Below are positions 10,301 through 33,638 of a DNA stretch of 41,240 bases, piece by piece. The stretch lies in IMG/VR virus record IMGVR_UViG_3300009332_000005, positions 1 through 41,240 of that record; one strand, written 5' to 3'. Source of the stretch: a virus. Positions within the stretch are counted from its first letter, which is position 1; every line of letters begins with the position of its first letter. The notes under the pieces were generated by a model that did no database searches, was not told where the DNA came from, and worked only from the letters and a program-made list of their open reading frames with translations. A program made the translations under genes and the position numbers.

Positions 10301-11862
10301 TCTGGAGCAGATATTTGAACAGTAGGAGCAGTTTGGTAACCAGAACCGATATCATCAATACTTATAGATGTTATGTTGCCAGAGAAATTAATTGATGCAG
10401 TAGCACCAGCACCGCCTCCACCCACAATATAAACTGTAGGAATTTCAATATATCCAGAACCACCACTTGTTAGTGATATATCAGAAACAACACCGCCAGT
10501 GACTTGAACACTCGCCAACGCATTAGCAGTATCTGAACCAGTGCCGCCTTGAAAAACTACATCAACAGGAACACCAGCATCAGGATTCGTTTCAACTTCA
10601 CCAGACTGGAAGGAAACAATATTACCAATTGATAAATCGTGATATAGAGACTCAACTACATTTTGGTCGCCCGCACCACCAAGTGAAGTACAAGATTGTG
10701 GTAATGCTAAGTTAATAGCATAAGAATTTGATAATGATGGTAATGCAACATTCGCACCATAATTAATAGGAATCTTAACTGTATCGCCCGGATTCAAACC
10801 GTGGTCGATAGCATAAACGTATCTATGATTAGTTGTGGAAGTTAAACGACCTTCTTCAAGTGGGTGGAATGTACAGTGGAAATACAAGTCGTGATAACCG
10901 TCAACTACCCAAGACCAAGATTCTCCTGGATTTAAGTCTGGTGAAATGAATGCAATATTATCATCAGATACAGCATTGTGAACCAGAATAGATGTAGATG
11001 GATTAGTGAAAATGATTGTGTCGCCTTCCCGAGCATTAATATGATAAGGAATCAGTATGTGATTTTGTGCTTGTGGATCATTAATAGCGCCTTCATCCCA
11101 AACGCCGCCGCCAGATTGACAATCAATAGCCATTTGTTCAATAGAAGTATTCCACTCGATGGCAACGCCATCACAAGTAGGACGAACCAAAGATGCATCT
11201 TCAATTACAGAACAAATGAATGTTTGTGGATCAGGGCCGCCGCCAGTCTCCGAGAATACTGCTTTATCAGAAGATGGTATATCAACCATATTGAAGCCAC
11301 CACTCAGTAAATCCCAATTAACTGGATTTACAGTCAAGTCATAAGAAAACTTGTACTGTGTATTGGGTTTTAATTCAGTCTCGAACCAAGTAAGAGCAGT
11401 CTGTTGTCCATCAGTGAATGCTTGAACAATTTGAGTGCCTTCTGTAAATAATGTATCAAACTTATATGCAATACCATTCGCCCAAGGACGTGCAAGGTCA
11501 ACAGGAACATCAAAACCAGAGTTTTTAATTATTTCAAGTTCAAAAGCATCAGCAGAAAAAGACGAATTGGTGACAAGGTTTGTTGTGTTATATGTTACAT
11601 CAAAACCACCATTAGGAATCATTTCTGTTGGATTAACAAATGTTGCAGAACGATTAGCAACATTAATCAGAAAGTCTTTATACTCTGGTAAATGCTCAAG
11701 ATTCTCCATTACTTCCAGAGACTTCAACATCAGAGATAGATCCTTAACTAACAGATCAGGAGCAGATAATTTAATATTCAGAGAGTTGAGAAAATCACTC
11801 TTCTGTTGTTCTATTGTATTTAATTCAGTTAAAGTGAATTTGTGACCTGTATAGTGTGCCAT
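4327..11862 (-). CDS. Giant multi-domain adhesin (2511 aa) with two cupredoxin domains
   Basis: The ATG is preceded by AGGAAG. Domains by approximate residue: 1-80 helical anchor. 83-200 a jelly-roll/CBM-like domain. 265-345 cupredoxin 1, with H295 and loop C330-T-F-H333-P-L-E336 (Glu where amicyanin has Met). 460-630 GxGY beta repeats. 635-815 HxH module. 1070-1135 a half-cupredoxin without ligands. 1285-1395 cupredoxin 2, starting LYRGGTYRF, with H1303 and loop C1377-A-W-H1380-A-S-M1383, which matches the amicyanin C-x2-H-x2-M pattern. 1530-1790 and 1975-2112 jelly-roll repeats ending in DNVS-type strands. 1794-1868 a second HxH module. 2208-2354 an array of C...C...G.W mini-modules. 2355-2511 two Ig/IPT-like domains. 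No nuclease, depolymerase or lysin signature was seen. Probably a host-contact or decoration protein; electron-transfer or metal-binding function is inference. Confidence 0.75.
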   Translation of the reverse strand: MAHYTGHKFTLTELNTIEQQKSDFLNSLNIKLSAPDLLVKDLSLMLKSLEVMENLEHLPEYKDFLINVANRSATFVNPTEMIPNGGFDVTYNTTNLVTNSSFSADAFELEIIKNSGFDVPVDLARPWANGIAYKFDTLFTEGTQIVQAFTDGQQTALTWFETELKPNTQYKFSYDLTVNPVNWDLLSGGFNMVDIPSSDKAVFSETGGGPDPQTFICSVIEDASLVRPTCDGVAIEWNTSIEQMAIDCQSGGGVWDEGAINDPQAQNHILIPYHINAREGDTIIFTNPSTSILVHNAVSDDNIAFISPDLNPGESWSWVVDGYHDLYFHCTFHPLEEGRLTSTTNHRYVYAIDHGLNPGDTVKIPINYGANVALPSLSNSYAINLALPQSCTSLGGAGDQNVVESLYHDLSIGNIVSFQSGEVETNPDAGVPVDVVFQGGTGSDTANALASVQVTGGVVSDISLTSGGSGYIEIPTVYIVGGGGAGATASINFSGNITSISIDDIGSGYQTAPTVQISAPDVATIPDGIGGTIPTTPATAIATINASGSIDSITITENGSGYHSPPTITLVGGTPTVAGSVSGEINGSVLGITLISGGSGYGSGDGSVGVGERKWEEYIITAVQKGDARVDIFFDDVNVIGHLHTAELTPAEYQQIKNGTPTVIMTSTDGEGSGENSPHSHSATFDWDPALNNGDGGMYLVGMTGSHTHGMQNYYDITGGTKVELTNFGHYHEILISLDDEATLKAAPLQNVTQDTDGTWSATSGNTLILTSDYGTSDPQHFHTLEMGCLDPDNDTYLIIAIDQHIHDFDRVWYPGSSQFTLGQYNFALGGDDTNPTSINLPFIDIIGYVKKDKGIECDAHGLKAGDKVHYQNVYNGIHHGNTNYFVDYVIDWDHFVLTESVIYPLENAPGTTPTQFDVVESYEVVADLASYRFEVERDLTNHVGSPFIEGVEIHWSRPRTVKSTNHGLSVGDVVQLPSGPQPYTPSELPGAMNDHTVVALGDGYGPTDNMEITVDTQTTLTFVDPDTTTVEGAQDSPWYWTWWDHSDPSYAPYQVDEAVAASFGGNEGTTGGFDLYRGGTYKFTNNAWNPSGHIVQPDPFTGLPTPMYMHAAGVKAILGAGWDNLVEAGMVHNDGKKCVSMRADHGLTIVAGDHNPFNNLEEEPGNWTSTETFPVCMGLNGWCEELDVDGWYYNGEDDKQTCLDLNPTSEVGLAQWRESQYIGNFSKEFTWKIPEDFGLTGSDGNSGLGPFVAPGEVNGYYAVEADGGLYKFDKEGMIEGTNRTVNLYRGGTYRFRVNAAGHPMYITTDDGSHFTPGAYFGEYLLGVNGSRAEEGAGDQTYADSSNFGLDGAGVPKYEILEFTVPSVAPDTLYYQCAWHASMMGQFNIIDLPVVNAGEDIVVYYHHGQDNMYTPLHIKDKIVVDNGTSTDYFQVQPEPVNSFPVKGTQADVLNEGNLLTATGEGAIPKIQAMNIELGTTSYIDPLVMIPGIGSEQFLVTNNESGLAKVYISVDIDKRSNISLDNVTFKEVVWTESGSWQIQGGTAFTNTTVAGYIEQIVTGSIVEGTTYEIQYDIVESFKDDFDAEVGTVQAVLIGDTIVEGTSNTTVGHYSETVIAPANTNILRLNNTGKGKIDNVSIRERVTGQNAWYMGEGWNSVGGKAYIDGTISSKTEVNQTVDIETGKLYEVKYNLADLDPNDNGMSGRLRVTLGTNPENLISNWNFDFTDPVLVNWTTSGPDVQIVNEKLIFNSSTNGTATYTLANALVKNEKYEATIDCDVFNENILNFQVGPGPAGTHAHTFQMTETQSNWLQENPSVNTLSFVQTDGYHAETYTHIFTIAWSQDIMSYVLVSQTIPEGHDELTLVSTTNNNPTIDVFVDGVAQHTISTTGIHHIDLVGEASSTFMLQMNGSGSINSVKLVEEEIPAIDYDSTGVVPNGEQSYYTRAGSHDSKIHFIADVDNNRPEENNPYYTNIGFEGSIDNISVREVEENWTFASQEGGNSYVDQTSQQIYTSGVGTGARGIAHISFEITNEMNYRVGFNIDRPTDSIVKIGPTPDSDTYGSFEITANDNDGDKDFIFTAPVTGVAYITLSTTGNGFTYWDNVSVKTIPNLSSDEYLLLARSLNVFGVPIGGEERWKSVHLDMENADYTGQPISGMRTLESFGESVIENYYDVNRRSNDILNPPVSLTGMNIEFGTRAVTAINPSCSNDLYNNQVDCETPNGTWFDTVVSFCSDSIYPDEVSCIEPNGTWTAGSCSNPIYGDVTSCEDAGTCSDSQFNNSETQCTTSGGVWTSDNNTWTFGVCTDLSFNDQSSCESPRGVWTPENPAHCTDLSFNDQSSCESPRGVWDATVVEAMTGDTIEVTGAGIDPNYIITIGGVEQSSSPINLPTKVNFILNADTPLGIQEFKITNIDGDFAILDVPFTVLDHLRIITVTDNLDGTYGVTGASFESTTTVTLIDQATTTDYPQTVTFVDANNISFTDVVNPGTYDVRVDNSDGSTFTEIDAVVIA
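4816..4951 (-). repeat. In-frame 78-bp direct duplication (58 bp identical) of a Cys mini-module
   Basis: Bases 4816-4873 and 4894-4951 are identical over 58 bp, with a 78-bp (26-codon) period. Each copy encodes CTDLSF..QSSCESPRGVW. Perfect identity implies a very recent duplication, or maintenance by recombination, within the C...C...G.W array of the giant adhesin. Confidence 0.95.
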
Positions 11863-17797: not shown

Positions 17798-18808
17798 TTA
17801 GAATTCAACTACAAGTTTCAAATCTTCAATCTGATCAGAAGCACGAGTAATCGCACGGCGATTCTCAAGATAAATTAACTGTCCTGAATCTTGTTCAAGT
17901 GATGTAACAGCATCAGCATATACCGCAGATTGTGCCTTTGTTCCACCGCCCGCCAATTCAGGATTACGTAACAGACCAATTTGACGGAAGTCATCATTTT
18001 CTGGGAATCCATCAGAAGTTTCTAGTCGAACGTGAATCAAACCGTGATGACATTTTGCCGTAAAGATAGCATCAACATCACCAAAGTTTGATTGCTCAGA
18101 ACCAGAAAGAACACCAGTACCAGAAATAACAGGCATCCAGTCATTTGTAGTTGAGTTAATAATATCATTCAATTCTAGCTTATAAAGGAAAGTCCACACA
18201 TAACCATCAGCAGTAGTAATTGCTTGTGAAGTTAGTCCTGCCGCATCACCTGTAAATCCAGTTGGTTCCTCAGAAGCACCAGTAGGTAGCCATAATCCAC
18301 CAGTAGTGTTCTCACAAGTTGTACGTGAAGTAGCAGTACCACCATCAAATACACCACCAATATAACACTTACCACCAGTAGGTTCACCAGTACACATATA
18401 AACACGATACTCTGAATTCATTATAACTGAATGATATCCAGTCTTTGAAACGAAAGAACGACCGGGCTCAGCGATACCTACAATACCATTAGTAGTATCA
18501 CCATCGAATGCTAAAGTATCACCGCCTTCCCAGTCAACACGTGGAAGTACAGGTGATATATCATCATTCTGAATACGCTTTGCGCCAACAATGTCAGCCC
18601 AATATTGTCCTTCATCTTCATCAAGTGGATCAGGTAATGTGAAGTTACCTGAAGATTCGTCATTTCCTTGAGCATCATCAGCCCACGCTTGTGAACGTCC
18701 GAAGCCTAGATACAGGAAGTTATCATCAACAGAACCAGTAGTTTTGAACTGGTCAATAAATACCATCAAGTTCTGTGTTCTAAATTTACTGGTTACAATT
18801 GCACCCAT
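17798..18808 (-). CDS. 8: Baseplate wedge protein gp8
   Basis: 336 residues, close to T4 gp8 (334). The N-terminus reads GAIVTSKFRTQN, matching the AIVTSKFRT start region of T4 gp8, followed by the FLYLGFGRSQAW segment (T4: FITFGRSEPW). Further matches are PRVDW, the GYVWTFLYKLE motif in the middle, and a C-terminus with RQIGLLRNP and GQLIYLENRRAI. In T4, gp8 is a dimer in the baseplate wedge that binds gp7 and gp10. Residues C148 to W173 form a C...C...GG.W.P segment. As I recall, T4 gp8 has the same pattern here, and related segments occur in several neighbouring proteins. The gene has a strong AAGGAG site and its own late promoter at 18859-18866. The position next to gp6 and the gp7-type gene fits T4 order. 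Confidence 0.93.
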   Translation of the reverse strand: MGAIVTSKFRTQNLMVFIDQFKTTGSVDDNFLYLGFGRSQAWADDAQGNDESSGNFTLPDPLDEDEGQYWADIVGAKRIQNDDISPVLPRVDWEGGDTLAFDGDTTNGIVGIAEPGRSFVSKTGYHSVIMNSEYRVYMCTGEPTGGKCYIGGVFDGGTATSRTTCENTTGGLWLPTGASEEPTGFTGDAAGLTSQAITTADGYVWTFLYKLELNDIINSTTNDWMPVISGTGVLSGSEQSNFGDVDAIFTAKCHHGLIHVRLETSDGFPENDDFRQIGLLRNPELAGGGTKAQSAVYADAVTSLEQDSGQLIYLENRRAITRASDQIEDLKLVVEF

Positions 18809-18890: not shown

Positions 18891-21800
18891 TTATACTGGG
18901 ACAGGCCACACATTTGAATCATCAATGATTGTAGTATGTATATGGTCGCCTGCACCGCCGCCTTCAAAGTTTTGTGTCCATTCTCCACCTAATGCAACAC
19001 TACCTAAATATGTCAACAAATTGTGATTGTCATAGTCGCTAGTTTGTGATACAATGTTATATTGTCCAGTCGTATGTGAAACTGTCAATTCGTGTGTATA
19101 TTGAGTTGCGTGAATCATATCTCTCTGAGGAGTTATAACGAGATTTCCAGAAAGAAGAGAAGTGTATTCAGAAACGCTCATCCAATAATCGTGATCGTGA
19201 TAACCACCAGACAACTTGAATTTATGTACAGTCTCACCAGTACCAGGAATTCTATCAAACTGAGTGATTCCTGTTACAACAAACTCACCATCTGGCCCAA
19301 TATTAGGATTAAACTTAATTGTATATCCGTGATAATGAGCGTCAGCCCCATTAGGCGAATCGAAGAAAATGAATCCGTAATTAATATCCTGAGCATTGAT
19401 TAATTCATTTGCTTGTGAAAGTGTAATTGGTTCACAGATTCTGCCTGCATATTGACCTTCTGAGTCAAGTGTACAGCCATCATATAATAAGTGGTCGTGT
19501 GAACCTTCTCCATCAATAAATGATGGCTGAATCCAAATAACAGGCGGGTTATTCGCCTGAAGAATTCCATTAACGAATGTCTTTCTTTCTGTCAAATCTT
19601 CTACTGTTTCTGTTGTTGTAGTAGGCGTAGAAACATTTGAAATTACTGGTTCACCAACTACAACTTGATTTGCTCCATCAGAATAATATGTTGTAGTGGT
19701 TGTAGTGGTAGTGATTGTTACTGTTTCTGTTGTTGTAGTAGTTATCAAATCAGAATAAGTCGTGATAACAGTCGTATCACCAGCTTCTGGAGTGTCATTG
19801 TATGTTGTAGTTTCAGGACTTAATTCTGTTGATGATGATTGTACTGTAATCTGTGGATCAGAAGTTAATACTTCATCAACGCTTGTTGTTCTTGTTACAA
19901 AGATTGAACCACCAGTCTGTTGAGGAACTGGAGCGGTATTAGGATTCCAGTCAACAGTCAAGTTATGCCAATGAAGTCCTTCGGACTCATTCATTACAAC
20001 AGATGTATAATATTTCGAAGTGTCTTGTGTATTATCTTCAATACCACCACGAATCCAAGTAGTGGATTCTGAACAATAGAATTTATTTGTCACATCGTTC
20101 CATTTGATTGTATAATCGTGGAAGTGGGCACCCTCAATTGAATCATACACTAATACTGATTCTTCAATACCATCAATCAGATTCATTGCTTCTGTGGTTG
20201 ATAAACCATCAGCGTGTTCAATCTCATTATTCCAAGCAAATGGTCCAACAACTGTATTATTGAAGAAGTGTGGATGCGAACCACCAGGATACGGATAACC
20301 AGGCGCACCGAACGTTGGAAGAATTGATAATGATTCATTGAATCCAGGTCGTGAAATAACATTAGAAACACTTGTTGCGTGAGCGTGTGACCTTGGCGTA
20401 GTGTTGAAGAACTGAGCACCATCTGTAGATTCCCATTTCTCCACATCCTGGGCAATGAATGACAATGAATCACTATCATAGGTTACACGAATGCCGTGAT
20501 AATGGTCGCCGTTTGCGATAGAAGAATATATCATAATTTCTGCTGAATCGCCATTAATCAAGTCAGTTGCTTGTTCATCTGTTATAGGAAGAGATTGTCT
20601 TCCTGCATTAACACCAATTGTATCAAGTGTTGTATTATTAAATGAATGAAGATGATCAATTTCAGACCCTTCAAGATTGTCCCAATCGTGGGCATTTGCA
20701 AGAGTTACATCAGGAGCAGAATGAAGTGGAGTACCATTCCATCCTAAGTGAGTAGTTAATCCATCTACTGTCAATGTATGCTCGTGAGTTCTTGTGTCCT
20801 CTGTTACCATAGTGTATTCACCAGTGTTATATTCATCCCAGAATTCACCGATTTCATTTGCAATGAATTGTTGAGTGGATAAATTCCAAAGAATCTTATA
20901 CTTATGATAATGTAATCTATTGCCAGAGTTAATGATAGATGAGTAAATAATTACTTCATTCACAACACCATTTGCTAATTCTTGTGCTTGGATACGTGTG
21001 AGTGGTGTAGCGAGTCTATCTGAATTTGCACCAAGTGTGTCAAGTTGTGAACTATCAAAATAGTGGATGTGAGTGTTTTCTCCATACTCATTTGCACCAA
21101 GAATGTTTACAATAGGAGCATTTTCAATATAGAATGTAGTTGGTCCATCATCAGTCTCAGGTGTCCAAGGTGTATCTGCACCAGTGTCATATGGTTCCCA
21201 AATATCATTCTCTTCGTTATAATACCATCCAGCAGAGGAACCAATAATGGTATCTTTATCAGTAACACCAGTCCAAGATGTGATAACAGGATGAATATGG
21301 GAAGCTGGATCATTTAATGACCAGATAGGCCAGAATTCATCCCAATCTTGCATTTCGATATCTGAAATCTCTTCGACTTGGAACATATTCTCATTATCAT
21401 ACGTCACTTTGTATCCGTGAACGTGAGCCACTTCCGTAGCTGGTATCTGAGCTGGTGCATTAGGAATATCAACAGAACTGTAAGTTTCTGTTAACTTATA
21501 AATGTTTGTATTATTTGGGCCAGTTCCTTGAGCAGTGTCAATACCACCACGGGTGGAGAAGTATAATTCTCCATCTGTATCTTCGCCGATAGTTAATAAT
21601 GATTCGTCATATGTGGTAAGGGTGACAACTTCGGTCACAGGATCCCAAAATGAAAGAGGTTTTCTTATATATGCAAAATCATCTGACCACTTATCAAACT
21701 CTAATATGTCGTGTCCTTCAGGATTTGTCTGACCAACAAGATGGAATTGATTATCTGCTGTACTCCATATCATTGTAAATGTATGAACATAGAATTCAGA

Positions 21801-24800
21801 ATGAACAGAATCCGTCTGAGTCACCACAACAGGTGATCCTGGATTTGCTTGTAAGAATTGAACGTGTGCCGCAGTTAATGTTAGTGTATGACTATGGGTA
21901 GAGCCATTTGTTGGATTCGGCAGAACAATAAAATGAGCAGATAGTCCCTCATTATTCTCTTCTAATGTATATAAATGACCAGATGTACCTTCCCACGTAG
22001 TAGACCAATCACCAAAGATATACTTACCTACCAGTTCAGGCATAGCAGTACCACGATACACAAAACCACCACACACTGAAATACCAGTGCCGTGAGAATA
22101 TTCGTGAATAGGTTGCTTTAAGTCATTCAAGTATTCGTTTGTAGTAGTATATCCTAAATCAATAGCAATTTGGTCAATAATTGGTTGTTGTTCTTCATAG
22201 TAATGATATGCTTCCATTACTCTCCAACCGTAGTTGCCGCCCGATTCTACAATATTAATCTCTTCAAATTTATCTTGACCAACATCAGCACACCAAAGTC
22301 TTCCAGTGTTATCAAAAGAGAATCTCCAAGGATTTCTGAATCCGAATGCGAAGATTTCAGGCCTATATGCTACTGAATCTGGGCCGTAAATTGAAGCAGT
22401 AAATGGATTATCCACAGGAATAGTATACGGTAGATTGTTTACTGTATCCTCTGTAGGATCGATTCTAAGAATACATCCAAGTAGATTAGTAGGATTTTGA
22501 GCATTACCATAGTTGCCGTGTCCACCGTGGCCTGTAAGCGGAGAAGTGTCACCAGCAGAACCACCATCACCAAGACCAATATACAGCATATCATCTGGTC
22601 CGAATGCTAGTTCACCACCATTGTGATTGAAATCAGGCTGTGGAATAGTCATTAGGACTCTTTCTGTTGAAATGTCTACAGAATGAGTAGCAGGATCAGC
22701 AGAAGTGAATTCTGATATAACAGTAGATGAAAGAGGATACCCCCAAGCACCAGTTGTGCCGCCCTGTTCTGTCATATAGTAAACATATAACTTACCATTA
22801 TTAACATAGTCAGGATGAAACGCTATACCAAGCAATCCTCGTTCATCATAGTTTGCGAACGGGCCGAGACCAATAGTTAGATTCAATGAAGTCAAGTCCA
22901 TAAAACCATCAGTTGCGCCAGTTATAGTGTCTAATAGATAAATCAATCCAGCTTGGTCACAAATAACAACTTTATTACTATCCATTGGATATGCTTCAAT
23001 AGTGGCGATATCAGTTACTTGATCTGTCAACATAGTAGCACTTACTAGGTCTCCAGTATCACCAGTGCCGGCAATTTGAGCAATATGATTAGATGAGTAA
23101 ATTTCTACCCAATCAACATTTGGATTTAGCTGTTCACTCCATACTTGATTGTGTTGTAGTGTAACATCAGGATTGTTTAAGAAACCAGCAACATATTCGT
23201 CCGAAACTTCCATAAAGACGTTCTGAGGCCATTGATTGCCCATAAAGTCCATTCCACCCATAGAATCAGGATCAACAATCTTGTCTGGCTGATAGTTGAA
23301 ACATAGCCAAGTAGTTACAGGAGTGTATATAAATCCGTGAGTTAATGGATTATTCTGCCAGTCAGTTTTGTTTTCCCAATCAGCATCATATGTCACTTCA
23401 TATTCGTGATAATGGGCAGAAGTAATTTCTCCGTGGATATTCGTGATTGTGCCACCTTGAGTCACATCGTATTCATCAACAATAGGATGACCATTATCAA
23501 GTTTACCGATATTGTCATATAGTGTAACAGAAGTGATATCACCATCAATTAATTGTCGTGCTTGTATTCTTGAAAGAGGATCAGCAGTACGCCCTCTTTG
23601 TCTATCAACAACTTCACCAGGTTCAAAATATGAGGCGTGTCCTTTCAGTGGAGATAATGATTCAAGTGTGAAATAGCCCCAAGATTGTGAATTAGTATGA
23701 CAAGTCGCTTCGTCTGGAGATGTTTGATCGGAACACATTGGATTCATCCAGAACATTGGGTCACCAAAGAACGCCACACAATCAGCTTCGTTTGTGTATT
23801 GTGAATTGAAACATTCTCCGATACCATTATAACGTGGATCAGTTTCAGAAGCAACCCAATCACCCCAAAGAGGAGGTGTCATAATTCCACCACAAACGAG
23901 ATTAGCACCATAGAATGTTGGAATCTCGAATGCGTTTCTATTAATCAAATCTCTTGCTTCTTGGTGTGATAATCCTCTTGCAGTTGCTTCTTTGCCGTGT
24001 ACAATAAGATTCTTGATTTGCTCACCATTAAAATCGTGAACGTGGAATGCCGAAGCCCCAACATTCATTTCAGGCAATTCAAGTCCTTTTGTGATAACAG
24101 TCTCCACAAGAGGAGCAAATCCATTCTTTTCTCCGTGAGAATGGATTTCGTGTTCACTTTCAAATGCCTGAATCTCAACAGTATCAATTACATCATTGGT
24201 TACGCCATAAATATTGTGAATTCTATTTGATTCTCTATTAGCCTCAAAATACTTGTATGATTTCTCAGGCGCATAGTCTGCCTCTGGCATAAATGAATCA
24301 ACCCATTCAACAAGTTTTTGAAGTGCTTTATATACAGACATTTCCCAAATTTCAGCAGAAATCATTCTACCATCTGTGGAACTATACAAATCATCAACAA
24401 TTTCCAATTCTTGTGTTGCAGACGGGAATTCATCAATAGGTAGAACCTTCAATTGTTTTGTGAATTCAAGAGCAGTTGTTTCTGGCCAAGCAAGAATTGA
24501 GTTTCTTACATCTTCATTCATCCAAGAAATTGTATATAGTTTCTCTTTAACTATAGTGCCAATTCTACCAGCATCAATCTCAAAGTTTACAGATAGATGG
24601 TCTGTTGGATTATCCCAAGATTCAGCAGAAATTAATGCGGATCTATTGTCCATCATATTCATAATTTCTACAACATATTCATCAAATCCATCTTCAAGAT
24701 AAACACCAAATCCAGTATGCGCTCTTCCAACTGTACCGTGTTGTTCTGACTCTTGGTCCCAAATATCAATAGCAACATCAAGATATGAGAAGATGTATGT

Positions 24801-26339
24801 AATCAATTTAACATAATTCGATGGCATTTCAACCTTAAGGTCTACGGTAGACTGGAATGAGAATTCAGCAAATAGTTTTAGACCAACTGGATGAACCAGC
24901 TTCTTTAATACTTCACGGTATGTCTGTACAGGAACATCAGATTTAATTACATAAGAGAAGTCCTGATAATAACTATTATCTTGGAGTTTTCTATCAGATG
25001 ATAAGAATCCGCCAGAATCTAACCAATAACCATTTGTCTTCCAAACAGCAGTTTTAACTTTTGAATGAGAACCATCAAGAAGATTATTACACTGTTCACG
25101 AGTAACTGGCCGTGCTGTGCCTTCTGTGAGAATGTTATTTTCTACGCTTTGTATAGTTGAAGTAACTTCGGCTAATGGGAACCAGTGTAGAAATGCTGGT
25201 TCACCGAAGAAAGGTGATTCATTAATATGTCCTTCTGGATGCAGTGCATTTACACAATCAATTTCATTATCAAATGTGAATAGCGGATAATCATTACTTG
25301 AGGAACAGAACGAAGATGTTGGATTTTCCCAATATATTGAACCAGCAGTATTGAAAATATTCTCACCAACAACAAACTCACCATCAATATTTTTTAGGTC
25401 AAATCGTGTCCAGTCTGTATTAAATCCTTCAATAATCGCTGTTGCATTTGATGTAGTACCTTTAATCGCGCCAGCGCCTTCTGATATGATATACTTAACT
25501 TCATTCGGATGGGTTGTGATATGCATCCAACGATCTGCCCAAGAGTTACCGTTGATTATACATTCACCTTCAGTTTCGATGCCTTCCGAGATAATAACAG
25601 CAACGTATGGTATCTGACCAGATGTACCAACATCTTCCCAGATTGGCTCGCCCTTGATGAACTCTCCTGAAACTTCTGTTAAAAGTAACTTCTCATAATC
25701 AGAAGTTGCTGAACTTTCATCCATATCAATGAAAGCAGTAGCCCCAGATATTTGACCAATAACTTTCTTATTATATACTGTCCTTACAGTTTCAGCAGTA
25801 TGAACATTTTCAATCTCATTATAGTATTCAGATTCAGGATTAGTGGTCTCTTTATCTGTTAGAACTGTAATCCATTTTGGCTCATACCAAATTGAACCAG
25901 ACGATTTCATCAACCACTGTTTCGGATAAATAACATTTACATCGGTATTAAAATCTCTTCTGAATAGAAAATTAAGTGCAGATGTTGTACCTTTTTGTCG
26001 ATAAACATCTTGAATATTTTTAGCAAGGAATGCCTTATCTGTAGTAGGTACAGTGGGATCGATTGCAGTGTGTGGAGTTGTTGTTAGATATTGTTTCTCG
26101 AACTCTGGTATAAATTGATCCAAAGCGTGGTCAATATCAACATTCTGAATTAAATCTGTAATCTGAGAATATTCACCAAGTTCACCATTGACGTCCGTTT
26201 CCCTTTCCAGATATTCAAAATACTTCCGTAAGAAAGTAATGAACATAGGATGATCTTCCCGAACATAATCAGGAACCATTCTCTCTACAAAGATTGAAAG
26301 AAACTTTGCTGGAGTTTTGGAAAAATTATCGTTGGCCAT
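18891..26339 (-). CDS. gp7-type baseplate wedge protein with giant extension carrying a PQQ-dehydrogenase-like propeller (2482 aa)
   Basis: It lies between gp6 and gp8, the T4 gene 7 position. Residues 1-500 resemble the C-terminal part of T4 gp7: FLRKYFEYLERE, then QKGTTSALNFLFRRDF (T4 has TKGIEASYKFLFKVLY), two small SGATAFID / SNATAIIEG domains, and KKLVHPVGLKLF (T4 RFVHPVGFGFI). About 740-1090 and 1640-2460 are repeats of 130-150 residues with paired HxH motifs. About 1100-1616 is a glucose/sorbosone dehydrogenase-type propeller: ERGLLGIAFHP, FNHNGGELAFGP (H1239), GLGDGG, FGFRNPWRF (R1335, N1336), GGNYGWRVME, GEDTDGELYF. It is interrupted at about 1475-1575 by an HxH module. Cys mini-modules lie near 345-385 and 842-890. 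A Thr-rich tract is at 2148-2257. The start has only a weak site (TAGGTA). The wedge role is likely; enzyme activity is unproven. Confidence 0.8.
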   Translation of the reverse strand: MANDNFSKTPAKFLSIFVERMVPDYVREDHPMFITFLRKYFEYLERETDVNGELGEYSQITDLIQNVDIDHALDQFIPEFEKQYLTTTPHTAIDPTVPTTDKAFLAKNIQDVYRQKGTTSALNFLFRRDFNTDVNVIYPKQWLMKSSGSIWYEPKWITVLTDKETTNPESEYYNEIENVHTAETVRTVYNKKVIGQISGATAFIDMDESSATSDYEKLLLTEVSGEFIKGEPIWEDVGTSGQIPYVAVIISEGIETEGECIINGNSWADRWMHITTHPNEVKYIISEGAGAIKGTTSNATAIIEGFNTDWTRFDLKNIDGEFVVGENIFNTAGSIYWENPTSSFCSSSNDYPLFTFDNEIDCVNALHPEGHINESPFFGEPAFLHWFPLAEVTSTIQSVENNILTEGTARPVTREQCNNLLDGSHSKVKTAVWKTNGYWLDSGGFLSSDRKLQDNSYYQDFSYVIKSDVPVQTYREVLKKLVHPVGLKLFAEFSFQSTVDLKVEMPSNYVKLITYIFSYLDVAIDIWDQESEQHGTVGRAHTGFGVYLEDGFDEYVVEIMNMMDNRSALISAESWDNPTDHLSVNFEIDAGRIGTIVKEKLYTISWMNEDVRNSILAWPETTALEFTKQLKVLPIDEFPSATQELEIVDDLYSSTDGRMISAEIWEMSVYKALQKLVEWVDSFMPEADYAPEKSYKYFEANRESNRIHNIYGVTNDVIDTVEIQAFESEHEIHSHGEKNGFAPLVETVITKGLELPEMNVGASAFHVHDFNGEQIKNLIVHGKEATARGLSHQEARDLINRNAFEIPTFYGANLVCGGIMTPPLWGDWVASETDPRYNGIGECFNSQYTNEADCVAFFGDPMFWMNPMCSDQTSPDEATCHTNSQSWGYFTLESLSPLKGHASYFEPGEVVDRQRGRTADPLSRIQARQLIDGDITSVTLYDNIGKLDNGHPIVDEYDVTQGGTITNIHGEITSAHYHEYEVTYDADWENKTDWQNNPLTHGFIYTPVTTWLCFNYQPDKIVDPDSMGGMDFMGNQWPQNVFMEVSDEYVAGFLNNPDVTLQHNQVWSEQLNPNVDWVEIYSSNHIAQIAGTGDTGDLVSATMLTDQVTDIATIEAYPMDSNKVVICDQAGLIYLLDTITGATDGFMDLTSLNLTIGLGPFANYDERGLLGIAFHPDYVNNGKLYVYYMTEQGGTTGAWGYPLSSTVISEFTSADPATHSVDISTERVLMTIPQPDFNHNGGELAFGPDDMLYIGLGDGGSAGDTSPLTGHGGHGNYGNAQNPTNLLGCILRIDPTEDTVNNLPYTIPVDNPFTASIYGPDSVAYRPEIFAFGFRNPWRFSFDNTGRLWCADVGQDKFEEINIVESGGNYGWRVMEAYHYYEEQQPIIDQIAIDLGYTTTNEYLNDLKQPIHEYSHGTGISVCGGFVYRGTAMPELVGKYIFGDWSTTWEGTSGHLYTLEENNEGLSAHFIVLPNPTNGSTHSHTLTLTAAHVQFLQANPGSPVVVTQTDSVHSEFYVHTFTMIWSTADNQFHLVGQTNPEGHDILEFDKWSDDFAYIRKPLSFWDPVTEVVTLTTYDESLLTIGEDTDGELYFSTRGGIDTAQGTGPNNTNIYKLTETYSSVDIPNAPAQIPATEVAHVHGYKVTYDNENMFQVEEISDIEMQDWDEFWPIWSLNDPASHIHPVITSWTGVTDKDTIIGSSAGWYYNEENDIWEPYDTGADTPWTPETDDGPTTFYIENAPIVNILGANEYGENTHIHYFDSSQLDTLGANSDRLATPLTRIQAQELANGVVNEVIIYSSIINSGNRLHYHKYKILWNLSTQQFIANEIGEFWDEYNTGEYTMVTEDTRTHEHTLTVDGLTTHLGWNGTPLHSAPDVTLANAHDWDNLEGSEIDHLHSFNNTTLDTIGVNAGRQSLPITDEQATDLINGDSAEIMIYSSIANGDHYHGIRVTYDSDSLSFIAQDVEKWESTDGAQFFNTTPRSHAHATSVSNVISRPGFNESLSILPTFGAPGYPYPGGSHPHFFNNTVVGPFAWNNEIEHADGLSTTEAMNLIDGIEESVLVYDSIEGAHFHDYTIKWNDVTNKFYCSESTTWIRGGIEDNTQDTSKYYTSVVMNESEGLHWHNLTVDWNPNTAPVPQQTGGSIFVTRTTSVDEVLTSDPQITVQSSSTELSPETTTYNDTPEAGDTTVITTYSDLITTTTTETVTITTTTTTTTYYSDGANQVVVGEPVISNVSTPTTTTETVEDLTERKTFVNGILQANNPPVIWIQPSFIDGEGSHDHLLYDGCTLDSEGQYAGRICEPITLSQANELINAQDINYGFIFFDSPNGADAHYHGYTIKFNPNIGPDGEFVVTGITQFDRIPGTGETVHKFKLSGGYHDHDYWMSVSEYTSLLSGNLVITPQRDMIHATQYTHELTVSHTTGQYNIVSQTSDYDNHNLLTYLGSVALGGEWTQNFEGGGAGDHIHTTIIDDSNVWPVPV

Positions 26340-26359: not shown

Positions 26360-28123
26360 TTATTCTGCGATTGATTGCATTGTAACACTACTATTATTTA
26401 GTACAAGCAAGTTACTTCTTATTGCAGAAATATCATTTGATTGTGGTGTAGCATATAAACTAATAACTGAATTTGTGTCAAGTACAGGTCTAAATCCGAT
26501 TAGCTCAATAACTCCAGTATCATAGTCTACTGTTCCCTGTTCTGTATTCACGAATACCTCAGAAACAATATCATAAAGAAGTATATTTCCTTGACCATCA
26601 TCTAGTAATGCATATTGAGTAGATGCCTCAGTATTACCAAATACAGAAGAAACAGCAGTACCTGGTTTAATTGCATTATCATATTTGAATATATAGTTAC
26701 CAGTTGTATTGGATGCTTGAATATAGAATTTCTTATAAATCTTAATATCAGTCAAGTTATTACTAATTGATGAATCCGTATTATCAATCGTATTGGTTAA
26801 TTTAGAATATCGTAAGGTGACTTTGAATTGACTGATTTCGTCTTTGAAGAATCGTTCAATACTATTAATAATATTACTCTGAATTTCACCAGCAGATAAT
26901 GATGTCTCTAATGGATTATATTTCACTGTGGTATCAACATCAATATATGTGTATTCAGGAGCAGTAATTATTGGATTAATTGCCAACATATTATACTTTG
27001 AAAGAATATCTTTCGTCAATTTTTGTTTAGTTAATGGTGATAATTCGAGTCCGTGTTTAGGTTTAATACAGATGAATACCGCACCATATTGCGGAGGATC
27101 ATTATCTTCGCCACCCCATACAGAAATAGAATCGATGTTTGGATATTTCTCAATCAGAATAGTTTTATAATCTTCTGCTGTTACAGCACGATTTTGACGT
27201 TCATACGCCCTCGGCGCAGTCATTTTGATATTTTCTGTTGATTCGATATTTGAACCCAGAGAAGAAATATCAACAGTTTCCACACTAACTTTACTTGAAT
27301 CATATACACCATCAATGGTTGTTTCAAGTGCAAACACTTGTTCATTAATTGTTGATGAATAGTTGCCGGCTTCACCAGTTGTTGAAAGATATGTAACACT
27401 GATTACAGAATTATGATATGGCACTTTTCCGAATATATCATTACCGAAATAAATCTCAGTTACTCCATCCAGACCTTCTTGAAGAAAGTAAATATTTGAG
27501 GAGGGATTCGTTTCAGAAAGAAATTGATCATTGGACCAAGGAATATCATTAACAGTTAATTTAATTGTACTTCTATCGCAAGTAGGATCCTTAATGATAA
27601 AGTTTTGTATTTCAGAAAGTCCTTCATCATATGTCCATTCAAGACCTTTTAGAGAGCCTTGATGAAGTTTGATTTCACCTGAGAATTCATTTCCTTCATC
27701 CTCAAAAATATTCACGGTATCAACATTTGTGAATGGCATAGAAACACCATTAATACTAGAAACAAATTGTGTTCCTCTTTCAACTATGATATAATTTGGA
27801 TCATATCCATCAGTATTGAATGAAAGTTTAACAATAGCCTCGGCAGCAGTAGCGGATTTAGGAGTATATCCAATAGTCTTTGCGTGAGATACTACAGAAT
27901 TTCGTAGTGTTGCAGTATCAAGAAAGGATTCATTGATTGCCATATTAGTATGGAAACCCATATAATGAGTTGTGTATGCCATTACATCAAGCATAACGCT
28001 CATACCAGAACCTTCAAAATCATAGTCCACGAATTCATCTTGATTAATCAAGAATTCTTTGATATTCTTCTTAATTCCATCAAATTCAAGATTTGAAATA
28101 TTTAATTGTCTTTGTTCTGCCAT
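26360..28123 (-). CDS. 6: Baseplate wedge protein gp6
   Basis: 587 residues (T4 gp6 has 660). The N-terminus has the family pattern of gp6/J-like wedge proteins: LEFDGIKKNIKEFL, then FEGSGMSVMLDVMAYTTHYM and NESFLDTATLRNSVVSHAKT..GYTP. A central APRAYERQNRAVTAEDYKTI segment, typical of gp6/gpJ, is followed by SVWGGEDN..P and a mixed alpha/beta C-terminal part. In T4, gp6 forms the inner ring of the baseplate and links the wedges. The gene starts 4 nt after the gp25 stop, and its ribosome-binding site AAGGTAG overlaps the end of gp25, so the two are probably translationally coupled. Confidence 0.93.
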   Translation of the reverse strand: MAEQRQLNISNLEFDGIKKNIKEFLINQDEFVDYDFEGSGMSVMLDVMAYTTHYMGFHTNMAINESFLDTATLRNSVVSHAKTIGYTPKSATAAEAIVKLSFNTDGYDPNYIIVERGTQFVSSINGVSMPFTNVDTVNIFEDEGNEFSGEIKLHQGSLKGLEWTYDEGLSEIQNFIIKDPTCDRSTIKLTVNDIPWSNDQFLSETNPSSNIYFLQEGLDGVTEIYFGNDIFGKVPYHNSVISVTYLSTTGEAGNYSSTINEQVFALETTIDGVYDSSKVSVETVDISSLGSNIESTENIKMTAPRAYERQNRAVTAEDYKTILIEKYPNIDSISVWGGEDNDPPQYGAVFICIKPKHGLELSPLTKQKLTKDILSKYNMLAINPIITAPEYTYIDVDTTVKYNPLETSLSAGEIQSNIINSIERFFKDEISQFKVTLRYSKLTNTIDNTDSSISNNLTDIKIYKKFYIQASNTTGNYIFKYDNAIKPGTAVSSVFGNTEASTQYALLDDGQGNILLYDIVSEVFVNTEQGTVDYDTGVIELIGFRPVLDTNSVISLYATPQSNDISAIRSNLLVLNNSSVTMQSIAE

Positions 28124-28127
28124 AATA

Positions 28128-28535
28128 CTACCTTAATCTTTTTAAGAAGAAATCCAAATTAATCAAACCAGAATCATTATTTGGTGTATAAAAAATGGAA
28201 ACTGTATAGCCATTTTTATCTGGATCAGCATTTACAATAATTCTTTGTAATGATATTCTCGGTTCGTGAAGTCTTATAGCGGCTTCAATTTGTGCTTCTA
28301 GTGTAACTCTTGTTTCAATACTCATCGGTTCAAATAATGAACTATATATTGTACTACCAAAATCTGGTTGAAAAACACGCTCCCCCTTTTGTGTTTTAAT
28401 TATATTAATAATCGAACCATTAATAGCCTCAACATCATTTCTTCCAACAATATCATTTGTTAGAGGATGTACAATCATATCTAGGTCAATATCCCTATAT
28501 CGTCTTGTAATTTCAGTTTTAATCGGCTGTGGCAT
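28128..28535 (-). CDS. 25: Baseplate wedge protein gp25
   Basis: 135 residues, the usual gp25 length (T4 132). Family marks: RYRDIDLDMIVHPLTNDI near the start, the AINGSIINIIKTQKGERVFQ stretch, PDFGSTIYSSLFEP, and EPRISLQRI near the C-terminus. gp25 binds gp6 and gp53 and helps trigger sheath contraction; it is related to the conserved gp25/GPW family of contractile tails. It has its own late promoter (28563-28570) with AAGGAT upstream of the ATG and is followed closely by gp6. Confidence 0.95.
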   Translation of the reverse strand: MPQPIKTEITRRYRDIDLDMIVHPLTNDIVGRNDVEAINGSIINIIKTQKGERVFQPDFGSTIYSSLFEPMSIETRVTLEAQIEAAIRLHEPRISLQRIIVNADPDKNGYTVSIFYTPNNDSGLINLDFFLKRLR

Positions 28536-32354: not shown

Positions 32355-33638
32355 TTAACCTCTCGCTGATATTGTCACTTTTGGATCAGAATAGAAACCA
32401 TCTTTCATACATTCAAGTGTCATAATATATTCCGTATTATTAATTTTATGATGGATTGCTGATACGAACCATTCTCCAGTCATATATTGATCCTCTGCTT
32501 CCTCTCCTTGATGAATATTAGTAGGAATGTGAAGAGTCAGAACATCACCCGCATAAATGTTTGAATCGCCTGCTATATCAAACGAAATAATATTATTTCG
32601 TAATTCCGCTTTTTTCATATCATATACACCATAATGATTTTTATCTCCCTTATCGTGAATATCATATAGATAGTTACTACTCATAAATCCAGAATGTGCC
32701 TCTGAATTTGATGTAAATAAATCACCAGCATTTAATCCAACTTCACCGAGAGTTGTGTCCATCATACCATCGTAAATAACTTCGTATTTGTCAAGTTTCT
32801 TCGTAATTAAATTATGAGTCAATAATGAATTACTATATAATCCATTCATTGTTCCCTCGGATAAATCAAATCTCTGTATTTCATTATAATCCTTCATAGT
32901 AGATCCATCAATGACACCTCGTCCAGATGTAGTAGTATGAAAGTCTGTAATGTGATTATTTTTCAAAAACAATTCTCTCATTGGCTCTTTATTTTTTAGG
33001 GTGTCAATTGTTACAAACTGAAACCCCTCATTATTTTCAAAAAACATATAATTAGAATAATTGTCCAGAGATACACTATTTTTAGCAAGAAAATTCATCA
33101 ATTGGAATGGATTCCAATTAGGAACAACAATATTTTTAGTGTGTTTTGTTGCCTCAATCTCCTTCATCTGTTCCCATTCATAATCAACGCCAAACTCCAT
33201 TATATCGGCAGCAACATACTCTACAATTTCAGAGGAAGTCATTCCAGAAAAAGACCTACTGATAATAGTATTATTATTCTTTATAAGTGTTGGAGAAACT
33301 ACACCCACATCATAGATAATATATCCATTTTCTTTTTGACCATTGGTAATACTATTAATAACGAATTGCTTTTCAAAATTTGCTGTTGTGTCCACTGAAA
33401 GGGAGGGAGTAATGATTTCAATTTTAATCATCTCCTTTCCTGAACCAATAATACCATTCGCCTCAACAAAACCAGTACCATCTTTGACTTTGATGTTACC
33501 AATAATACAGTTATTGTAGATACTTTCAAAAATAGAAACTTGTTCCACAATTCCTGACATTTCTGATTCATCACCAAACTGATTGACAAATATAATGTCC
33601 CATTCAGATAATCCGGCGGCATTTAGATTTAGAGCCAT
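32355..33638 (-). CDS. 27: Baseplate hub protein gp27
   Basis: 427 residues (T4 gp27 has 391). The start region has FGDESEMSGIVEQVSIFESI followed by YNNCIIGNIKVKDG and GSGKEMIKIEI, a tail-tube-like beta pattern comparable to the first domain of T4 gp27. Near the end, AGDVLTLHIP, GEWFVSAIHHKIN and YIMTLECMKDG match the second tube-like domain (T4 FYVDEVIHEL region). gp27 forms the trimeric ring that connects the gp5 spike to the tail tube. Its ATG directly follows the gp53 stop (TAAATG), with AGGAAG inside gp53, so the genes are coupled. The order gp53-gp27-gp5 supports the call more strongly than sequence similarity alone. Confidence 0.85.
   Translation of the reverse strand: MALNLNAAGLSEWDIIFVNQFGDESEMSGIVEQVSIFESIYNNCIIGNIKVKDGTGFVEANGIIGSGKEMIKIEIITPSLSVDTTANFEKQFVINSITNGQKENGYIIYDVGVVSPTLIKNNNTIISRSFSGMTSSEIVEYVAADIMEFGVDYEWEQMKEIEATKHTKNIVVPNWNPFQLMNFLAKNSVSLDNYSNYMFFENNEGFQFVTIDTLKNKEPMRELFLKNNHITDFHTTTSGRGVIDGSTMKDYNEIQRFDLSEGTMNGLYSNSLLTHNLITKKLDKYEVIYDGMMDTTLGEVGLNAGDLFTSNSEAHSGFMSSNYLYDIHDKGDKNHYGVYDMKKAELRNNIISFDIAGDSNIYAGDVLTLHIPTNIHQGEEAEDQYMTGEWFVSAIHHKINNTEYIMTLECMKDGFYSDPKVTISARG

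What the first reader, a model, noticed from the sequence alone, without database searches (positions are those of the whole stretch)
21490..23040. PQQ glucose/sorbosone dehydrogenase-like propeller built into a baseplate gp7-type protein
Residues about 1100-1616 of the wedge protein read like a complete GSDH-family propeller (GLLGIAFHP, HNGGELAFGP, GLGDGG, FGFRNPWRF, GGNYGWRVME, GEDTDGELYF). H1239 fits the catalytic His144 of Acinetobacter soluble glucose dehydrogenase, and R1335-N1336 fit its Arg228-Asn229. The PQQ-binding Lys377 counterpart is not apparent, so activity could be lost and the fold used as a sugar-binding surface. A PQQ-enzyme fold as part of a phage baseplate is, to my knowledge, not described.
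Basis: partly seen in the sequence, partly recalled or inferred. Interest (0 to 1): 0.85.

Follow-up and report, generated by a model that had tools for sequence, protein, structure and literature searches.

The report
Sugar-dehydrogenase propeller in phage baseplate protein
A group of uncultured T4-like phages carries, inside a structural protein of the tail's baseplate, a six-bladed domain of the sugar-oxidising (PQQ glucose/sorbosone dehydrogenase) kind with its pocket residues kept, which suggests a sugar-binding or sugar-oxidising tool on the particle itself.

Summary
Residues ~1096-1625 of the 2482-aa ORF at 18891-26339(-) are a glucose/sorbosone dehydrogenase (PF07995) propeller: Pfam E 4.6e-35; AlphaFold model closest to HHIP (Z 37.3) and PQQ sugar dehydrogenases (Z 27-32). 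The ORF lies between gp6 and gp8 genes and begins as a gp7-type baseplate wedge protein. The domain occurs in 33 further IMG/VR contigs, several near-identical; in 21 of the first 28 gp7 start and propeller share one ORF. No cultured phage was found with it. A His-rich module of ~100 aa interrupts it.

Correction: the missing Lys377 is not a phage loss. Related bacterial proteins mostly lack it too (Lys in 2 of 80), and fungal AA12 enzymes without it use PQQ. Glu1166, His1239, Arg1335-Asn1336 and Gly1354-Gln1355 are identical in 18 of 18 phage and 80 of 80 bacterial rows; non-enzymatic HHIP has lost Arg-Asn.

One lineage has a short gp7 (709-712 aa) with relics of the arm, so the wedge can do without it. 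Best reading: an accessory host-contact arm with a working sugar pocket; catalysis and PQQ use are untested.

The parts
18891..26339 (-). gp7-type baseplate wedge protein with long C-terminal arm, 2482 aa (P0001)
   Evidence: PHROG 17744 'baseplate wedge subunit' E 1.4e-48 on residues 1-750; PF23786 Baseplate_wedge 36.2 bits, cut-off 27; lies between gp6 and gp8 genes
24081..26339 (-). gp7 core, residues 1 to about 753
   Evidence: the short gp7 of L184 aligns to this part, without about 77 residues at 605-681
23055..24080 (-). variable part of the arm before the propeller, residues ~754-1095, with HxH and Cys repeats
   Evidence: in 21 relatives with a gp7 start the domain block (residue 1060 here) starts at ORF position 921-1660, counted from the stop before the ORF
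21465..23054 (-). GSDH (PF07995) six-bladed propeller, residues ~1096-1625
22842..22844 (-). Glu1166 (position of YliI Gln82; of sGDH Gln76 by the start of the phmmer match)
   Evidence: E in 18 of 18 phage and 80 of 80 bacterial rows
22623..22625 (-). His1239, counterpart of the catalytic His (His144 of sGDH)
   Evidence: H in 18 of 18 and 80 of 80 rows; aligned to YliI His147
22332..22337 (-). Arg1335-Asn1336, counterpart of sGDH Arg228-Asn229
22275..22280 (-). Gly1354-Gln1355, at the place of the Ca2+ ligands Gly247-Pro248
   Evidence: PQQ-bound 3das also has Gly-Gln there
21600..21917 (-). His-rich module inserted in the propeller, residues ~1475-1580
   Evidence: absent in the 5 bacterial rows shown and YliI; H1482, H1484, H1513, H1519, H1543, D1544 identical in 19 of 19 rows, 18 distinct
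18894..21464 (-). C-terminal arm, residues 1626-2482, with HxH modules and Thr-rich linker
   Evidence: 821-827 aa after the domain block in 21 of 23 relatives examined; HxH pairs invariant in 16 rows
17798..18808 (-). gp8-type baseplate wedge gene
   Evidence: PF09215 E 5.8e-34
26360..28123 (-). gp6-type baseplate wedge gene
   Evidence: PF21379, PF21387, PF21871, PF04865; PHROG 219
28128..28535 (-). gp25-type wedge gene
   Evidence: PF04965
31358..32350 (-). gp5-type hub gene
   Evidence: PF06714

Best explanation
It is an accessory host-contact arm on the gp7-type wedge protein of a T4-like phage. The arm carries a bacterial-type GSDH propeller, taken up once (among the sequences sampled) from the HHIP-like 'ADVGQ/NYGW' subclass of bacterial sugar-dehydrogenase-like proteins, set among His-rich modules that probably bind metal. 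The propeller keeps its central pocket and most likely engages a sugar of the host surface at adsorption, with or without oxidising it. Shown: family, fold relation, fusion in one ORF, conservation, one phage clade, and a natural arm-less version. Inferred: presence in the virion, projection from the baseplate, sugar as ligand, metal in the modules.
For: gp7 start and propeller in one ORF in 21 of 28 loci (the other 7 ORFs are cut at the contig end); the gp7-core scan found the same contigs and 4 more (25 of 57 loci). Order of assigned genes gp5-gp25-gp6-[this]-gp8, with two unassigned ORFs between gp5 and gp25. Residues 1096-1475 of the propeller are the most conserved part: mean pairwise identity 0.693, against 0.660 for residues 1-520 and 0.591 for the C-terminal arm (66 pairs of 12 proteins). 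Of 71 positions that are 95% conserved in 80 bacterial relatives, 57 are fixed to the same residue in the phages; outside the stretch used to fetch the bacteria 35 of 47, against 89 of 311 other positions invariant (Fisher p 2.8e-9). Pocket residues identical in 18 of 18 phage rows (17 distinct) and 80 of 80 bacterial rows, while HHIP has His-Asp at Arg-Asn. Phage rows one clade, support 1.0; branch joining them to Pedobacter/Daejeonella-type sequences 0.908. Three contigs of one lineage have a gp7 of 709-712 aa without the arm, with relics of it, so the wedge can do without it.
Against: No virion proteomics, host or cultured member. Model of middling confidence (pLDDT 64.5); I could not measure the pocket. 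The bacterial set was chosen by similarity in a 66-aa stretch that contains Arg-Asn and Gly-Gln, so conservation there is partly by selection. The last 47 residues of the propeller are no better conserved than the arm (0.593), and 14 of the 71 bacterial-conserved positions are not fixed in the phages, Asp1343 among them (Asp in 80 of 80 bacteria, Ala in 9 of 18 phage rows). Conserved pocket residues could serve fold stability. Cations that anchor PQQ in sGDH have no clear counterpart; where 20 of 80 bacteria have Arg (YliI Arg341 column, badly aligned beside the insert) the phages have Asn in 16 of 18 rows. Twenty-seven of 57 gp7-core loci are cut by the contig end and say nothing on whether the arm is general.
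Confidence: 0.55

Rival explanations
1. Active quinoprotein: the propeller takes PQQ and Ca2+ from the surroundings and oxidises an aldose or reducing end on the host surface, passing electrons to an acceptor, perhaps the cupredoxin-like domains of the neighbouring structural proteins.
For: His, Arg-Asn and Gly-Gln kept; PQQ-bound 3das has Gly-Gln at the Ca2+ loop; AA12 enzymes use PQQ without Lys377, through a longer loop (PMC6881789, passages); the phage loop at that place is also longer than in YliI; a stretch with His and Cys-x-x-His-x-x-Met of type-1 copper kind, by eye, at 7702-7959.
Against: No counterpart to Lys377 and none clear for Arg406/Arg408; I met no member of this subclass with tested PQQ activity in the papers listed or read; electron acceptor and PQQ supply unknown; the cupredoxin link is proximity only.
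Confidence: 0.25
2. Pseudo-enzyme: the fold is kept only as a binding platform, as in HHIP, with ligand contact on loops rather than in the pocket.
For: Closest solved structure is HHIP, solved with heparin (7pgm); PQQ-anchoring cations absent.
Against: HHIP has lost Arg-Asn, the phages have not; bacterial-conserved positions are kept far above the rest.
Confidence: 0.3
3. Structural spacer: the propeller is only a rigid bead in the arm with no ligand.
For: It lies in a long repeat-rich arm; PHROGs has no match for the 822 residues behind it.
Against: Its larger part is the best-conserved stretch of the protein and pocket residues are fixed.
Confidence: 0.1
4. Assembly chimera, or a bacterial gene in a mis-called viral contig.
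For: Metagenomic contigs only; the phage collection gave no convincing phage record with the domain.
Against: Same fusion in 21 loci, 61-74% identity of the non-identical contigs to the window, T4-type genes around it; gp23 strong in 5 of 12 records, weak in 4, none in 3 including the window.
Confidence: 0.01

Closest known systems
Bacterial GSDH proteins of the 'ADVGQ...NYGW' subclass (e.g. Pedobacter L054, Daejeonella L050)
   Same: 35.5-46.5% identity in the 70 matches listed; same pocket residues, Lys377 mostly absent
   Different: ORFs of 384-720 aa in the rows listed (secretion presumed, not tested); have a Cys pair (72 and 73 of 80 rows) that the phages lack, and no His-rich insert in the 5 rows shown
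Hedgehog-interacting protein (HHIP), 7pgm/2wfx
   Same: Best structural match, Z 37.3, and best PDB sequence match
   Different: HHIP has His-Asp at the Arg-Asn site; animal signalling protein
Soluble quinoprotein glucose dehydrogenase (1c9u/1qbi) and aldose sugar dehydrogenases (2g8s, 3a9g, 3das)
   Same: Fold, catalytic His, Arg-Asn, Ca2+ loop position
   Different: Lys377 and the Arg406/Arg408 region not conserved; fused to a baseplate protein
AA12 fungal PQQ pyranose dehydrogenase (6jt5, 6h7t)
   Same: Six blades, no Lys377, longer loop there (PMC6881789, passages read)
   Different: Z only 22.0-23.7, 12-16% identity, level with Drp35-type lactonases
T4-type gp7 and relatives; short gp7 of L184-L186
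   Same: N-terminal core and gene order
   Different: No arm of about 1.7 thousand residues and no propeller
HxH iron-binding tail fibres (T4 gp37, Alteromonas phage R22Y)
   Same: Recurring His-x-His pairs in a tail protein (PMC11705849, passages read)
   Different: Here HxH pairs come in threes along one chain of a modelled alpha/beta module, not in trimeric fibres; metal not tested
GSDH proteins of giant viruses (Pithovirus LCPAC104/202, Marseillevirus LCMAC102)
   Same: Same fold family in a virus
   Different: Proteins of 371-584 aa; no tail; context not looked at

Membership tests
GSDH (PF07995) domain | Profile match above the curated cut-off | tested here: met
   121.9 bits against 25, E 4.6e-35; also in 12 of 12 records searched
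GSDH (PF07995) domain | Six-bladed PQQ-dehydrogenase fold | tested here: met
   Z 27-37 to the HHIP, aldose dehydrogenase and sGDH chains listed; model pLDDT 64.5
Active six-bladed PQQ sugar dehydrogenase | Catalytic His (sGDH His144) | tested here: met
   His1239, 18 of 18 phage rows, aligned to YliI His147
Active six-bladed PQQ sugar dehydrogenase | Arg228-Asn229 at the quinone | tested here: met
   Arg1335-Asn1336
Active six-bladed PQQ sugar dehydrogenase | Ca2+ loop carbonyls (Gly247, Pro248) | tested here: inconclusive
   Gly1354-Gln1355 aligned; main-chain ligation cannot be seen in sequence
Active six-bladed PQQ sugar dehydrogenase | Lys377 and Arg406/Arg408 anchoring PQQ carboxylates (sGDH type; Arg406/408 role and their match to YliI Arg341/343 recalled) | tested here: not met
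   Lys column Ser/Gly in 18 of 18 phage rows, Lys in 2 of 80 bacteria; YliI Arg343 column Leu in 16 of 18; Arg341 column Asn in 16 of 18 but poorly aligned. Hence not filed as an sGDH-type enzyme
Active six-bladed PQQ sugar dehydrogenase | PQQ-dependent sugar oxidation | not testable with these tools
   needs protein
AA12 | AA12 PQQ set (Arg273, His539, His560, Trp563-Asn564, Arg621; PMC6881789) | not tested
   no AA12 sequence or residue-level alignment at hand; Z 22.0-23.7 only
T4-type gp7 baseplate wedge | Profile match of the N-terminal part | tested here: met
   PHROG 17744 E 1.4e-48, PF23786 above cut-off
T4-type gp7 baseplate wedge | Gene between gp6 and gp8 | tested here: met
   26360-28123 gp6, 17798-18808 gp8
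T4-type gp7 baseplate wedge | Match to a solved gp7 chain | tested here: inconclusive
   no PDB sequence match worth the name

The most novel reading that the evidence does not exclude
The phage particle carries a working redox enzyme at its baseplate: a PQQ (or other-cofactor) sugar dehydrogenase that oxidises the host's surface glycan on contact and hands the electrons to metal sites (His-rich modules, cupredoxin-like domains) in the same tail, so that adsorption is coupled to a redox reaction.
Probability: 0.12. Interest if true: 0.92.

Novelty: new variant of a known kind. Interest (0 to 1): 0.66.

Why it matters
Enzymes known in phage tails (recalled) mostly cut glycans or peptidoglycan; an oxidoreductase fold with its pocket kept would be a new way of dealing with the host surface, and the isolated domain can be assayed for PQQ, Ca2+ and sugars. 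It also warns viromics: 'l-sorbosone dehydrogenase (AA12)' has been listed among viral auxiliary carbohydrate genes (PMC6460857, passage read), and hits of this kind can be tail domains rather than metabolic genes. Natural gp7 versions with and without the arm give a ready comparison.

Tried and rejected
Cultured phages: tblastn of the domain at E 1e-5 found 5 records. All four 'Acinetobacter phage MD-2021a' records have a yliI gene under the match; the one I opened (H1) sits among bacterial housekeeping genes; H2, H4 and H5 were not opened. MT837751 has, by eye, an actinobacterial-looking gene set. I reject these as phage examples. The search with the whole protein matched 101 records, 40 listed, mostly in the gp7 core. 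Chimera: rejected by recurrence.

The 80 are therefore biased to similarity in that stretch.

Structure of the HxH modules (A5 model, pLDDT 76.8, pTM 0.49): best PDB match Z 4.3, no conclusion; no PDB sequence match. gp7 core: no useful PDB sequence match. In the viral structure library, phage proteins appear only as weaker, general propeller matches. No tRNA in the window or in five pieces of the 99-kb record G006, so host unknown. dN/dS was not computed; near-identical pairs were only listed. AA12 residue set not tested. Pocket geometry not measured.

Rows: A1 has 19 rows of which L003 and L027 are identical (18 distinct); L030-L033 and L160, found later, are not in it. The phage/bacteria alignment used 18 phage rows (L018 dropped because it starts late; L003 and L027 both in, so 17 distinct); L027 was dropped from the tree.

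Literature: 10 searches, some with longer hit lists than shown (76: 10 of 20; 100: 10 of 321; 101: 15 of 88). I opened 8 papers, each by term passages only: PMC6460857, PMC9004378, PMC4133262, PMC6881789, PMC6881810, PMC11705849, PMC13384848, PMC7029224. Listed papers with the search words that I did not open include PMC7326052, PMC11990801 and PMC3974807. Only open-licence PMC papers were searched.
Full report
What is there. The ORF at 18891-26339 on the minus strand codes for 2482 aa. Its first 750 residues match baseplate wedge subunits (PHROG 17744, E 1.4e-48; Pfam PF23786 above cut-off). It lies between a gp6-type gene (26360-28123) and a gp8-type gene (17798-18808). Upstream are genes of gp25, gp5, gp53 and tail-cap type, with two unassigned ORFs between gp25 and gp5. 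This is the place of gene 7 in T4 (recalled). No useful sequence match to a solved chain was found for the core.

The domain. Residues 1164-1443 match PF07995 GSDH (E 4.6e-35 for the excised stretch). An AlphaFold model of residues 1060-1660 (pLDDT 64.5, pTM 0.65; 10-residue blocks from 26 to 92) aligns over residues 37-561 to HHIP (Z 37.3), to aldose sugar dehydrogenases (Z 29.8-31.7) and to Acinetobacter sGDH (Z 27.5-28.4); AA12 enzymes (22.0-23.7) and Drp35-type lactonases (about 22) come next. Foldseek gives HHIP E 5.6e-22 with TM 0.50/0.66 and rmsd 8.0, so the relation is sure but the model is not precise. By sequence the closest solved chains are HHIP and then sGDH.

Pocket. Against E. 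coli YliI and sGDH: His1239 is the catalytic histidine, Arg1335-Asn1336 are Arg228-Asn229, and Gly1354-Gln1355 lie on the Ca2+ loop Gly247-Pro248. Gln at that place also occurs in the PQQ-bound Streptomyces enzyme 3das. Glu1166 stands at YliI Gln82 and Trp1338 at sGDH Gln231. Lys377 is replaced by Ser (15) or Gly (3 of 18 rows). The bacterial subclass shares this: the E, H, R, N, W, G and Q are identical in 18 of 18 phage rows (17 distinct) and 80 of 80 bacterial rows, and the lysine column holds Lys in only 2 of 80 bacteria. So the missing lysine is old and says nothing about decay in the phage. Not all basic residues behave so: a column a little further on is Arg or Lys in 35 of 80 bacteria and His in 16 of 18 phage rows, and the YliI Arg341 column, badly aligned beside the phage insert, is Arg in 20 of 80 bacteria and Asn in 16 of 18 phage rows. 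In AA12 enzymes the lysine is also absent and a longer loop binds the carboxylate (PMC6881789); CcSDH was shown to be PQQ-dependent although several binding residues are missing, as they are in HHIP (PMC4133262); in AA12 the histidine itself is not strictly conserved (PMC6881810; all three read as passages). HHIP, a binding protein, has His-Asp at Arg-Asn; the phages keep Arg-Asn.

Conservation. Among 12 full-length relatives residues 1096-1475 of the propeller have the highest mean identity of the parts compared (0.693); its last 47 residues (0.593) and the insert (0.593) are at the level of the arm (0.591). Of 71 positions conserved at 95% in the bacteria, 57 are fixed to the same residue in the phages and 14 are not (Asp1343 is Asp in 80 of 80 bacteria but Ala in 9 of 18 phage rows). 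Leaving out the stretch by which the bacteria were fetched, it is 35 of 47 against 89 of 311 other positions invariant. The phages have also lost a Cys pair (Cys in 72 and 73 of 80 bacteria, not among the leading phage residues), as expected for a protein assembled in the cytoplasm (inference).

Distribution. Scans of IMG/VR found 28, then 32, then 33 contigs besides the window (L160 is the 33rd and was seen only as a match). Several are near-identical copies. In 21 of the first 28 the gp7 start is in the same ORF; in the other 7 the ORF is cut by the contig end. Of 12 records searched, gp23 is strong in 5, weak in 4 and absent in 3, the window among these. The capsid protein of the 124-kb record is 54% identical to that of Pelagibacter phage HTVC008M and 52% to that of Melnitz-type phages. 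The host is unknown. In the phage collection the 5 matching records look bacterial where opened (2 of 5), and in the viral structure library the close matches are proteins of giant viruses. In a FastTree of 17 phage rows, 80 bacterial rows and YliI, the phages are one clade (support 1.0) next to Pedobacter/Daejeonella/Sphingobacterium/Bacteroidetes sequences and one Phycisphaerae sequence (0.908; some deeper branches are weak), which points to one uptake among the sequences sampled.

The arm. After the domain block the protein ends 821-827 residues later in 21 of 23 relatives examined; L008 and L025 are interrupted, while L026, identical to L025 in the domain, is not. Before it the length varies (block start 921-1660). 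The window protein holds 19 HxH motifs, all from residue 733 on, against a shuffled mean of 2.9 and maximum of 10. In the C-terminal part they fall, by my reading, in groups of three pairs, invariant in 16 rows, and a model of two groups shows a repeated small alpha/beta module without a convincing PDB match. One such module sits inside the propeller, with five His and one Asp identical in 19 of 19 rows. HxH pairs bind iron in T4 gp37 and are proposed to do so in marine phages (PMC11705849, passages read); for these modules metal binding is inference.

Natural arm-less version. A scan with the gp7 core gave 57 loci: 25 ORFs that reach a stop codon and hold the propeller (the 21 above and 4 more; two of them, L008 and L025, stop early), 1 cut inside it, 4 that reach a stop without it, and 27 cut by the contig end without it. 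Three of the four (L184, L185, L186; 98-99.7% identical over 650 residues, so one lineage) have gp7 of 709-712 aa between the same gp6 and gp8 genes. L184 matches the window at 4-604, then from 682 to about 753, and its last residues match 1696-1718. Behind the stop codon, in another frame, lie codons like those of the C-terminus of extended relatives (GETDVWPKDPS in L186, GETDVWPKGPS in L184 and L185; DETDVWPKDPS in L009). The simplest reading is loss of an arm that was there before, and that the wedge does without it. The fourth, L218, is only 36% identical.

How it most likely works. The arm is an accessory part of the baseplate rim (inference from the position of gp7 in T4, recalled). The propeller keeps a pocket that in the known enzymes of the fold holds a quinone and a sugar. 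I think it meets a sugar of the host surface at adsorption. Whether it only binds or also oxidises is open: His, Arg-Asn and the Ca2+ loop speak for chemistry; the missing PQQ anchors, the HHIP kinship and the lack of any tested member of the subclass in what I read speak for caution.

Novelty. Each part is known (GSDH propeller, gp7, HxH pairs). The combination in a baseplate did not appear in the listings of ten literature searches, of which most papers were not opened. I file it as a new variant of a known kind.

Noticed in passing
window 7702-8007 (minus), residues 1286-1387 of the 2511-aa ORF 4327-11862: Cupredoxin-like stretch with GHPMYI and YYQCAWHASMMGQF, a full His/Cys/His/Met set of type-1 copper kind by eye; no Pfam match was reported for the protein.
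   Followed up: no
window 10849-11058 (minus), residues 269-338 of the same ORF: A second cupredoxin-like stretch by eye (YFHCTFHPLEEG) without the Met.
   Followed up: no
window 1911-2156 (minus), ORF 657-4247: Cupredoxin_1 match at residues 698-779, E 1.8e-4, below the curated cut-off; no Cys-His-Met ending.
   Followed up: partly
ORFs 4327-11862, 657-4247 and 18891-26339: Short Cys repeats of the type CxDxxFxxxxxCxxxxGxW in varying number (0 to 6 in 12 gp7 relatives), two of them near-exact copies at residues 2305 and 2331 of the 2511-aa ORF; may explain length variation.
   Followed up: partly
window 32355-33638 (minus): Gene beside gp5 with a weak match to glycosyl hydrolase family 134 at residues 301-393, E 4.2e-4, below cut-off.
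   Followed up: no
L022 5024-14290: gp7 core of this relative carries an extra stretch of about 390 aa after residue 159.
   Followed up: no
L028/L029 about 9640-10050; L012/L013 about 10250-10650: Lineage-specific insertions of roughly 115-135 aa inside the propeller block.
   Followed up: no
L184-L186, between about residue 607 and 612 of the short gp7: About 77 residues of the window's gp7 core (605-681) are also missing in L184.
   Followed up: no
phages collection, CAKLQH020000008.1 (L047) and MT837751.1 (L046): Records labelled as phage look like bacterial contigs.
   Followed up: partly
PMC6460857: Viral l-sorbosone dehydrogenase (AA12) listed among auxiliary carbohydrate genes; the present case shows such hits can be tail domains.
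   Followed up: partly
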